Shown here one piece after another: positions 28,201-29,460 of a stretch of 64,000 nucleotides of DNA. Position numbers and translations under genes: made by a program. The notes below the pieces were generated by a model. It ran no database searches, was not told the DNA's origin, and worked only from the letters and a program-made list of their open reading frames with translations. Position 1 is the first letter of the stretch. Every line of letters starts with the position of its first letter. Source of the stretch: Laetiporus sulphureus 93-53 (Eukaryota; Basidiomycota; Agaricomycetes; Polyporales; Laetiporaceae); assembly GCF_001632365.1 (NCBI RefSeq), contig NW_024468518.1, positions 186,877 through 250,876 on the forward strand, in the 5' to 3' direction.

Positions 28201-29148
28201 TACCTTCGAATGTACTGCAACCACAGACAAAATGATTAGGTCTACTATCTGCCAACAGCAGAATTCTCATACAACAACCAGACCCATGAGTCCACCGCAC
28301 TTTCCCCATTCTTCGTTAAATATGGCTGGCATCCAAAAATGGCACCCGACGTACATGAATCAATACATCACCCTTTATTAGAACACCTATTCGCTCACTG
28401 ATCTGAGGCACAAGAACAGGCAAAGGCATCACTGAAAGTTTCAGCTTCACGGATGAAATGGTATTTCGATGAGAAAAAGGGAGAAGTCCCATTCAAAGTC
28501 GGAGACCTAGTACTACTCAAAGGGAAAGATCTCAGAGTAAAAGTCAAATCTGCAAAGCTAGGAACACAAAACTTCAGACCCTAAAAAGTACTTCAGAAGC
28601 TAGGACCAGTCACATTCAGACTAGAACTATCTAAGCAAATGAAGGTCCACCCAGTCTTCCATGCAAGCAAGTTGATTATGTATCACCAAGACACGGTCGC
28701 AAACCGCGAACCTCCAAAACCTCCAGCCATCGAAATTGAAGGAGAACCAGAATTTGAAGTTAAAGAAATCTCAGACTCAAAGGTCGTAAGGGGAAGGGTT
28801 CAGTACCTCGTCAAATGGAAAGGCTATGACCATTCCGATGACACATGGGAGCCCCGAACAAATTTTATCAACGTCAACGAGTTACTTCAAGAATTCCACC
28901 AACAACACCCAGATGCTTCAAAAGCACCAATCAGGGTTGTCACATATGGCAGAAAATGCTTCGAATTATCCTCGTATGAATTAGCCCCAAAGTCCACACA
29001 TAGGATAAATCTAACAGATCAAGATGATGACGACTACTTTGTCTATCACAGGATGACGGAAAATGCCAAAGCTCCCACCAGGAGATCCGAGAATGCGGCA
29101 GGATGGAATGTCTATGCTGCTGAAACTCATACAATCCTCCCCCATTCG
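25233..29148 (+). pseudogene. G1 pol: protease-RT-RNase H-integrase-chromodomain
   Basis: Protease LLDSGAYSCYI (about 25407-25440) is intact. RT has RLVQDYRNLN and the active site VVYLDDILIF (about 26542-26572). A 1-bp loss in an A run near 26930 (G2 has one more A) shifts the frame, after which RNase H (TDSSDYATGAVLEQL), the integrase HHCC region (HPGRFKMLELITQNYWWPGM; CDSCQ), integrase core and chromodomain (RGRVQYLVKWKGYDHSDDTW, about 28792-28851) are in one frame. The first integrase Asp is Asn (VNLITQLP). The second Asp (SDRGTQFAS) and Glu (TDGQTERVNQ) remain. Stops TGA 27280, TGA about 27310, TAG 28237, TGA 28399 and TAA about 28582 break it. The frame continues without change into the dUTPase. 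Confidence 0.93.
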
Positions 29149-29460
29149 TGAACAGTAGTAGGAACCGGAATTGCAATTGAACCTCCGATTGGCACATATA
29201 CTAGAATTGTCTCATGAAGTGGCCTTTCTGCGCAATGGAGCATTGATATCGGAGCTGGCGTTGTCGATCCTGACTATATCGGAGAACTTAAAGTCATCAT
29301 GATTAACCATTCAGACTATCCTTTCAACGTTGCCGTTGACGATCGAATCGCTCAGATAGTATTTGAAGCGTATGTCGAAGGCATACCAGTTGAGAACAAG
29401 GGACTGCTCAAGAACAGACATGCACGAGGGGATAAAGGACTTGGCTCTACGGGACAATGA
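29095..29460 (+). pseudogene. G1 dUTPase domain, C-terminal to chromodomain
   Basis: A trimeric-type dUTPase hydrolyses dUTP to dUMP and keeps uracil out of newly made cDNA. All five motifs are present in order and in the chromodomain frame: motif 1 AGWNVYAAE (29098-), GTGIAIEPP, motif 2 region with SGLS after a TGA (29212-29214, Arg expected), motif 3 GAGVVDPDYIGELKV with the catalytic Asp and Tyr (29251-), motif 4 DDRIAQIVFE (29338-) and motif 5 RGDKGLGSTG (29425-29457). A TGA at 29149-29151 also fits a lost Arg. The domain ends the pol frame, just before the polypurine tract. Cellular dUTPases are free-standing; here it is fused to pol. Confidence 0.9.

What the first reader, a model, noticed from the sequence alone, without database searches (positions are those of the whole stretch)
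29095..29460. dUTPase fused to the end of gypsy Pol, after the chromodomain (G1)
Seen: all five dUTPase motifs in order, in the same frame as integrase and chromodomain, ending just before the polypurine tract. Known: betaretroviruses and non-primate lentiviruses encode dUTPase, but next to protease or between RNase H and integrase. A C-terminal dUTPase after a chromodomain is not an arrangement I know as standard for Tf1/sushi elements. Inference: a recurrent Gag-PR-RT-RH-IN-CHD-DUT architecture that protects cDNA from uracil.
Basis: partly seen in the sequence, partly recalled or inferred. Interest (0 to 1): 0.85.

Follow-up and report, generated by a model that had tools for sequence, protein, structure and literature searches.

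The report
Fungal retrotransposons with swappable dUTPase tail
Jumping genes of a fungus end their enzyme chain with a uracil-removing enzyme; an enzyme at that end was already described in 2010, but here one group of copies seems to have replaced it with a different version while keeping the rest.

Summary
A dUTPase domain lies at window 29053-29457, in frame with integrase and chromodomain, ending just before the polypurine tract and 3' LTR of a chromodomain Ty3/gypsy element (13938-30166). This copy is dead (five in-frame stops). The layout recurs: three more elements in the window, and genome-wide 127 of the 150 scored chromodomain matches have a dUTPase 106-204 nt downstream. In 17 of 70 distinct fetched copies no stop lies from chromodomain to dUTPase end. 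A carboxyl-terminal Pol dUTPase is already in print for Postia placenta PosPlaTy3-4 (PMC2864245) and HERV-L (PMC4724089). What my seven paper searches did not show is that the dUTPase behaves as a replaceable cassette: types A1 (element 1) and A2 (element 2) are 77-95% identical up to the linker, 47-71% across the dUTPase, then 87-91% over the next 240 nt. Transversions are 9.6 times denser in the dUTPase than in the body, synonymous sites saturate only there, and body and dUTPase trees conflict. Most likely function, inferred: removing dUTP during cDNA synthesis.

The parts
13938..14625 (+). 5' LTR of element 1 (TGTCACAG start); flanked on the left by target duplication ATTCT
   Evidence: 95.3% identical to 29479-30166; ATTCT at both outer ends
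15093..23177 (-). KDZ-type DNA transposon inserted in the leader of element 1 (not part of the element)
   Evidence: about 320-nt inverted repeats, PF18758 KDZ E 1.2e-26 in 21145-22149, 8-bp duplication CTATCATT
23670..25241 (+). putative gag region, two ORFs (assigned by position only)
   Evidence: no Pfam match
25346..26989 (+). protease and reverse transcriptase
   Evidence: PF13975 E 8.4e-9, PF00078 E 3.4e-31
26890..27282 (+). RNase H region, in another frame than RT in this decayed copy (read from the translation, not tested against Pfam)
   Evidence: ORF; frames
27319..28239 (+). integrase (zinc binding and core)
   Evidence: PF17921 E 3.2e-22, PF00665 E 2.9e-12
28753..28902 (+). chromodomain
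   Evidence: PF00385 E 1.4e-16
28960..29440 (+). segment that differs between types A1 and A2: linker plus dUTPase; 5' edge about 28960-29000, 3' edge about 29440
   Evidence: identity profile; transversion densities
29053..29457 (+). dUTPase domain of element 1 (type A1), two internal stops, C-terminal end of Pol
   Evidence: PF00692 E 7.6e-28; tblastn; motif table
29466..29475 (+). polypurine tract GAGAGGGGGA
   Evidence: sequence, just before the LTR start at 29479
29479..30166 (+). 3' LTR of element 1, followed by ATTCT
33277..33501 (-). element 3 chromodomain region (type C)
   Evidence: tblastn; PF00385 place C9:220192-220335
32821..33210 (-). element 3 dUTPase (type C, decayed)
   Evidence: tblastn E 1.9e-18; dUTPase tree
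44083..44430 (+). element 2 chromodomain region
   Evidence: 76% identical to element 1
44431..44828 (+). element 2 dUTPase (type A2, decayed)
   Evidence: tblastn 55% and 41% in two pieces to element 1; dUTPase trees
44850..45549 (+). element 2 3' LTR (5' LTR split: 34836-35144 and 36130-36526)
   Evidence: self-alignment
48450..49177 (+). element 4 5' LTR
   Evidence: 90.8% to 56611-57326
55839..56027 (+). element 4 chromodomain
56173..56553 (+). element 4 dUTPase (type B)
56611..57326 (+). element 4 3' LTR

Best explanation
The window carries decayed copies of a large group of fungal chromodomain Ty3/gypsy LTR retrotransposons whose Pol is extended at its C terminus by a trimer-type dUTPase, between chromodomain and polypurine tract. 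Shown here: the fusion, its recurrence, copies open from chromodomain to dUTPase end with all five motifs, low dN/dS, and that the A2 subfamily carries a different dUTPase cassette from A1 on nearly the same body and LTR start. Inferred: Pol brings the dUTPase into the virus-like particle together with integrase, where it hydrolyses dUTP to dUMP and lowers uracil in the cDNA, useful in resting hyphae or spores with little host dUTPase. Inferred: the cassette was exchanged by template switching between co-packaged RNAs of related elements, with crossovers in the linker and in the last codons before the polypurine tract.
For: One open 645-aa frame (L019) reads zinc-binding, rve, SH3_Tf2-1, Chromo and dUTPase in order. 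127 of the 150 scored chromodomain matches have a dUTPase 106-204 nt downstream; 123 of 150 dUTPases have a scored chromodomain upstream. 17 of 70 distinct fetched copies have no stop from chromodomain to dUTPase end (5 of these 17 loci hold N runs somewhere). dN/dS in dUTPase 0.07 for two pairs of open type C copies, 0.15 pooled within 21 A2 copies. Motifs complete in L019, L021 (B), L063, L067, L077 (C), L030, L032 (A2). The model of an external A1-type protein without stops (P0234) matches solved dUTPases (human, yeast, Arabidopsis) at E 1.2e-13 to 8.4e-12 among the 50 shown. Exchange: identity profile with two sharp edges; transversions A1xA2 0.023 in body against 0.221 in dUTPase, 9.6-fold, controls A1xA1 1.0, A1xC 1.4, A2xC 1.3; dS 0.47-0.62 in three body regions but saturated (pS 0.79) in dUTPase; body tree puts A1 with A2 (100/99.9) and rejects A1+L007 (p-AU 0.0014), while the dUTPase tree puts A1 with L007 (100/100) and rejects A1+A2 without L007 (p-AU 0.0045). 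Intra-family recombination of LTR retrotransposons is known for Onsen (PMC5668417, abstract).
Against: No biochemical or transposition data. The window's own four dUTPases are all decayed. dN/dS also includes decayed copies; one A2 pair reaches 0.28. In the protein tree without L007, A1 and A2 dUTPases are sister groups relative to C (98/94), so the donor was a relative, not a distant source. Long branches meet in the dUTPase DNA tree and with a shorter stretch the rejections weaken (p 0.022; L005+A2 p 0.041). The gag C-terminal part of element 1 against element 2 is also lowered (73-77%). Beyond 29680 the LTR values fall too (A1xA2 65-93%, A1xA1 61-93%), with a small A1-A2 gap at 30000-30080. 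Some excess of dUTPase transversions occurs within groups (CxC 2.5, A2xA2 1.9, A1xL005 3.3). The structure model has pTM 0.41 and says nothing on how the domains are placed to each other.
Confidence: 0.75

Rival explanations
1. No exchange: the dUTPase of A2 simply evolved much faster than the rest of the element, under relaxed or diversifying selection.
For: dUTPase evolves somewhat faster than the body even inside groups (transversion ratio 1.9 in A2, 2.5 in C).
Against: Synonymous sites saturate in the dUTPase while dS in adjoining domains is about 0.5; edges are sharp; dN/dS stays low within types; the distant pairs A1xC and A2xC show ratios of only 1.3-1.4.
Confidence: 0.07
2. Reverse direction: the body and LTR of A1 and A2 were homogenised by recombination while the dUTPase kept an older divergence.
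For: Sequence profiles alone cannot give direction.
Against: A2 bodies group with the A1-type copy L005 (96/96) apart from the other A1 bodies, and L007 has an A1-type dUTPase with concordant body and dUTPase distances (transversion ratio 0.7). Changing one segment of about 0.45 kb is simpler than changing nearly everything around it.
Confidence: 0.12
3. The C-terminal dUTPase is kept for assembly, as a trimer-forming tail that organises integrase or Pol, with catalysis secondary.
For: Studied retroviral dUTPases are trimers (PMC4531489, passages); position directly behind integrase-chromodomain.
Against: All five motifs are kept in open copies, which assembly alone would not need. Other families carry dUTPase elsewhere in Pol (L009: before protease; P0035, P0037: between RNase H and integrase, read from the sequences), which argues for the enzyme, not the place.
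Confidence: 0.12
4. Chance fusion or assembly artefact next to a host dUTPase gene.
For: None found.
Against: 150 scored dUTPase matches in the genome, 123 of them behind a scored chromodomain; four elements in the window; CHD-dUTPase proteins in other sources including Phanerochaete sordida.
Confidence: 0.01

Closest known systems
PosPlaTy3-4 and other dUTPase-bearing Ty3/gypsy elements of Postia placenta (PMC2864245; section 5 read)
   Same: Fungal Ty3/gypsy with dUTPase at the carboxyl terminus of Pol; other families there with dUTPase at the amino terminus or between PR and RT; a supplement title calls the hosts of these dUTPases CHD-containing
   Different: Its sequence and figure 3 (domain order) are not held, so chromodomain-then-dUTPase order and family identity were not checked; section 5 reports no exchange of dUTPase between close relatives
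dUTPase-bearing Metaviridae of Phanerochaete chrysosporium (Novikova and Blinov 2008) and Tmt1 of Tuber (Riccioni 2008), known to me only as cited in PMC2864245
   Same: Fungal LTR retrotransposons with a dUTPase
   Different: Position in Pol not seen by me; PMC5408684 says between PR and RT for the case it cites
HERV-L (PMC4724089, passages)
   Same: dUTPase at the C terminus of Pol
   Different: Endogenous retroviruses of vertebrates; chromodomain and RT not compared here
Non-primate lentiviruses and betaretroviruses (PMC4531489, passages)
   Same: Retroelement-encoded trimer-type dUTPase
   Different: dUTPase between RNase H and integrase (recalled) or as Gag-Pro trans-frame product; P0035 and P0037 show the RNase H-dUTPase-integrase order in chromodomain elements
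Bdelloid rotifer Juno, Vesta and TelKA LTR retrotransposons (PMC5408684, passages)
   Same: LTR retrotransposons with a dUTPase in Pol
   Different: dUTPase between PR and RT, no chromodomain

Membership tests
Chromovirus (chromodomain Ty3/gypsy LTR retrotransposon) | PR-RT before integrase in one element | tested here: met
   PF13975, PF00078, PF17921, PF00665 in order; RNase H only read from the translation
Chromovirus (chromodomain Ty3/gypsy LTR retrotransposon) | Chromodomain behind integrase | tested here: met
   PF00385 E 1.4e-16 in the window copy; SH3_Tf2-1 and Chromo in L019
Chromovirus (chromodomain Ty3/gypsy LTR retrotransposon) | LTRs, target duplication, polypurine tract | tested here: met
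   LTR pair 95.3% identical, ATTCT duplication, purine tract
Chromovirus (chromodomain Ty3/gypsy LTR retrotransposon) | Primer binding site; RT phylogeny naming the clade | not tested
   not examined
Homotrimeric dUTPase (PF00692) | Profile match above the curated cut-off | tested here: met
Homotrimeric dUTPase (PF00692) | All five motifs (consensus recalled) | tested here: met
   met in open copies L019, L021, L063, L067, L077, L030, L032; not met in the window's element 1, which is decayed
Homotrimeric dUTPase (PF00692) | Fold | tested here: met
   AlphaFold2 model of the relative P0234 (not of the window copy) matches human, yeast and plant dUTPases; residues 348-373, with motif 5, are under pLDDT 50
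Homotrimeric dUTPase (PF00692) | dUTP hydrolysis and trimer formation | not testable with these tools
   needs purified protein
PosPlaTy3-4 | dUTPase at carboxyl terminus of Pol | tested here: met
   against text of PMC2864245
PosPlaTy3-4 | 90-100% RT/integrase identity (family criterion in PMC2864245) | not testable with these tools
   sequence of PosPlaTy3-4 not held
ERV-L | Retroviral RT of that class, vertebrate host | not tested
   only the dUTPase position was compared, from text

The most novel reading that the evidence does not exclude
In these fungal chromoviruses the C-terminal dUTPase is an exchangeable cassette. It has been replaced at least once (A2) and probably more often (L005), under pressure from a host defence that reads uracil in cDNA or binds retroelement dUTPase, and the subfamily with the new cassette became the most abundant of the copies sampled.
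Probability: 0.25. Interest if true: 0.7.

Novelty: new member of a known kind. Interest (0 to 1): 0.42.

Why it matters
A dUTPase at the end of Pol is known, so the given finding adds a family and scale: a genome in which most of the best chromodomain matches are followed by a dUTPase (127 of 150). The exchange result is the new part. It suggests that an accessory enzyme can be swapped in a retrotransposon without disturbing integrase, chromodomain or LTR start, and it gives a natural experiment for what retroelement dUTPases are for: if replacement and spread go together, uracil control limits retrotransposition in fungi. Open copies of several dUTPase types in one genome make this testable.

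Tried and rejected
Rejected: chance or host-gene read-in. Rejected as sole explanation: faster evolution of the dUTPase. Not resolved: one or several origins of C-terminal dUTPases. All C-terminal rows as one clade is rejected (p-AU 0.0014), and so is A+C with the external CHD-dUTPase rows (0.005), but A+C with B as one clade is not (0.485); the protein dUTPase trees have only 134-143 columns. Not resolved: the host's own dUTPase gene; a search with yeast Dut1 gave 150 scored places that I did not sort into host and retrotransposon, and the only basidiomycete cellular dUTPases that I put into trees were the coronin-fused ones, so origin from the host could not be tested. Not resolved: name of the host fungus (G000 is unnamed; named relatives are Phanerochaete sordida, and Hermanssonia centrifuga, SH3 and dUTPase without a Pfam chromodomain). 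23 of the 150 scored chromodomains had no dUTPase in my lists; I did not look at them.

Led nowhere: promoter/terminator scan (bacterial consensus, no sites); Pfam on ten further window ORFs, 3 matched.

Rows dropped: the dUTPase tree used 82 of 84 places (L001 as duplicate, one short piece) plus 29 database proteins that I picked; the body and dUTPase trees used 35 of the 70 distinct copies, picked by me, mostly for having integrase sequence, without types B and N and leaving out some usable rows (for example L039, L058, L064, L066); one search used 15 of the genome's rows that I picked; one search used 5 A1, 13 A2 and L007.

Full report
WHAT IS THERE. The frame 28702-29460 reads chromodomain, a linker and a dUTPase domain. 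Pfam confirms both: PF00385 E 1.4e-16 and PF00692 E 4e-17 for the uninterrupted dUTPase part, or E 7.6e-28 for the whole with stops read through by the search. The element is a complete insertion: LTRs at 13938-14625 and 29479-30166, 95.3% identical, with ATTCT on both outer sides. An 8-kb KDZ transposon with an 8-bp duplication sits in its leader. This copy is dead: the integrase-to-dUTPase frame holds five stops, and three dUTPase motifs are damaged.

RECURRENCE. Three more elements in the window carry chromodomain then dUTPase. In the whole genome (38.6 Mb, 124 contigs, unnamed) PF00692 gave 150 scored matches of 204 candidates and PF00385 150 of 195. 127 of the 150 chromodomains have a dUTPase 106-204 nt downstream on the same strand, 23 have none in the lists; 123 of the 150 dUTPases have a scored chromodomain upstream, 27 have none (lists plus six extra dUTPase places). 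In fetched DNA (78 loci and the window) 71 of 84 dUTPase places lie behind a chromodomain, 8 lie before protease or RT, 5 could not be told, 3 of them at a contig start or N run; one place is a duplicate, so 70 of 83. The frames of chromodomain and dUTPase agree in 64 of the 71. In 17 of the 70 no stop lies between chromodomain start and dUTPase end. L019 has zinc-binding, integrase core, SH3, chromodomain and dUTPase in one open frame of 645 residues. The loci were fetched as the best dUTPase matches, so they are not a random sample.

TYPES. The dUTPases behind chromodomains fall into types A1 (element 1), A2 (element 2), C (element 3) and B (element 4); those before protease form type N (quick tree, 111 rows, 134 columns; A1 7 rows, A2 34, C 10, B 23, N 8, undetermined places included). 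A1, A2 and C are one group (99); B is separate (100). All C-terminal dUTPases as one clade are rejected (p-AU 0.0014), but a common origin of A+C with B is not (0.485).

SELECTION AND DECAY. dN/dS in the dUTPase is 0.07 in two pairs of open type C copies and 0.15 pooled within A2 (single pairs to 0.28), near the values for integrase (0.03-0.04 and 0.12). In 63 in-frame copies the dUTPase and the 300 nt before it hold 125 stops: 109 TGA, 11 TAA, 5 TAG; CpG is at 0.49 of expectation in the window. This fits decay by loss of CpG, as expected from methylation; methylation itself was not seen.

THE EXCHANGE. Between A1 (5 copies with L005) and A2 (13 copies) identity in 40-nt steps is 77-95% from 28560 to about 29000, 47-71% from there to about 29440, and 87-91% over the next 240 nt with the purine tract and LTR start. 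Further into the LTR values fall to 65-93%, but within A1 they fall likewise (61-93%). Within A1 and within A2 the dUTPase shows no such trough (A1 75-91, A2 88-95). Pooled over 105 pairs dS is 0.52 (integrase), 0.47 (SH3), 0.62 (chromodomain), while in the dUTPase synonymous sites are saturated, pS 0.79. Transversions, which CpG decay does not make, are 0.023 in the body and 0.221 in the dUTPase (84 pairs, L005 apart, ratio 9.6); other ratios are L005xA2 12.3, A1xA1 1.0, A1xC 1.4, A2xC 1.3, L007xA1 0.7, A2xA2 1.9, L007xA2 2.0, CxC 2.5, A1xL005 3.3. Body tree: A1+A2 against L007 and C, 100/99.9, L005 next to A2 (96/96), A1+L007 rejected (p-AU 0.0014). dUTPase tree: A1+L007, 100/100, A1+A2 without L007 rejected (0.0045) (35 rows). 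With a slightly shorter dUTPase stretch the rejections are weaker (0.022; L005+A2 0.041), and the program warned of long branches. The synonymous and transversion results do not depend on the tree. Along the whole element, element 1 against element 2 is 73-90% in gag, 81-95% from protease to chromodomain, 55-70% in the last 530 nt with the dUTPase, 82-90% in the LTR. The simplest account: the ancestor of A2 received its dUTPase from a related element whose dUTPase had split off before L007. A second, smaller event at L005 is possible (ratio 3.3). Both types also occur in database proteins of unnamed source: P0234 is A1-type (82% to A1, 62% to A2 dUTPase; SH3-chromodomain 86-89%), P0235 is A2-type (87%).

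ELSEWHERE. Of 113 proteins, 14 carry both PF00385 and PF00692; in P0035 and P0037 the dUTPase lies between RNase H and integrase (read). Of the 120 listed of 585, 10 carry both. P0238, P0239, P0242, P0243 and P0246 end 35-48 residues behind the chromodomain without dUTPase; whether by a stop codon was not seen. So dUTPase is probably gained or lost by lineage and sits at several Pol positions.

LITERATURE. PMC2864245 (section 5 read; passages) reports dUTPase in Postia placenta Ty3/gypsy elements at the amino terminus (PosPlaTy3-3), the carboxyl terminus (PosPlaTy3-4) or between PR and RT (PosPlaTy3-5), and suggests independent acquisition. PMC5408684 (passages) reports dUTPase in rotifer elements and notes retroviral positions including after integrase. 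PMC2774666 (passages) mentions dUTPase of fungal chromoviruses. PMC4724089 (passages): nearly all HERV-L have it at the C terminus of Pol. PMC4531489 (passages): lentiviral dUTPase matters mainly in non-dividing cells. PMC5668417 (abstract): frequent recombination inside the Onsen family. In the listings of my seven searches of the open library I saw no paper on dUTPase exchange between close retrotransposon relatives; most subscription papers are not in that library, and beyond the papers named here I saw listings only.

HOW IT WORKS. Shown: fusion, recurrence, conserved motifs, fold of a relative, low dN/dS, cassette difference on a near-identical body. Inferred: packaging with integrase, dUTP removal during reverse transcription, template switching as the route of exchange, benefit in resting cells. 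The chromodomain of P0234 matches CBX and CDY-type chromodomains in the PDB, so targeting to methylated histone is likely but untested.

VERDICT. Observation right; a dUTPase at the end of Pol already in print; new family and scale; the cassette exchange is the point worth a specialist's time.

Noticed in passing
P0059, P0063, P0064, P0069, P0070, P0072, P0083, P0084, P0085, P0087 (public proteins): Coronin-like WD40 proteins of Tremellomycetes (Kwoniella, Cryptococcus, Papiliotrema, Cutaneotrichosporon) with a dUTPase domain: a gene fusion, or gene models that join two neighbours.
   Followed up: no
L009-L014, L035, L068: A second retrotransposon group in the same genome with dUTPase in front of protease and RT; the matches of L009, L010, L011 and L013 sit in uninterrupted frames of 1778-1798 residues.
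   Followed up: partly
window 15093-23177: KDZ (Kyakuja-Dileera-Zisupton) transposon with about 320-nt inverted repeats and 8-bp duplication, nested in element 1.
   Followed up: partly
window 30395-30673: Fragment of a hAT transposase (dimerisation region, PF05699), just outside element 1.
   Followed up: no
window 24847-25144 against 40235-40532: The C-terminal part of the gag region is the second most diverged stretch between elements 1 and 2 (73-77%), possibly a further exchanged or fast-evolving module.
   Followed up: no
window 37467-39042 and 35144-36130 / 63299-63940: Further insertions in element 2: one pair of inverted repeats (231 nt, 92%) and a repeat also present inverted near the window end.
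   Followed up: no
P0035, P0037; P0336: Chromodomain retrotransposon proteins with the dUTPase in front of integrase, in P0035 and P0037 behind RNase H, the position of non-primate lentiviruses (recalled); P0336 begins inside the dUTPase.
   Followed up: no
L005: The dUTPase of L005 differs from other A1 copies three times more in transversions than its body does: possible second, partial exchange.
   Followed up: partly
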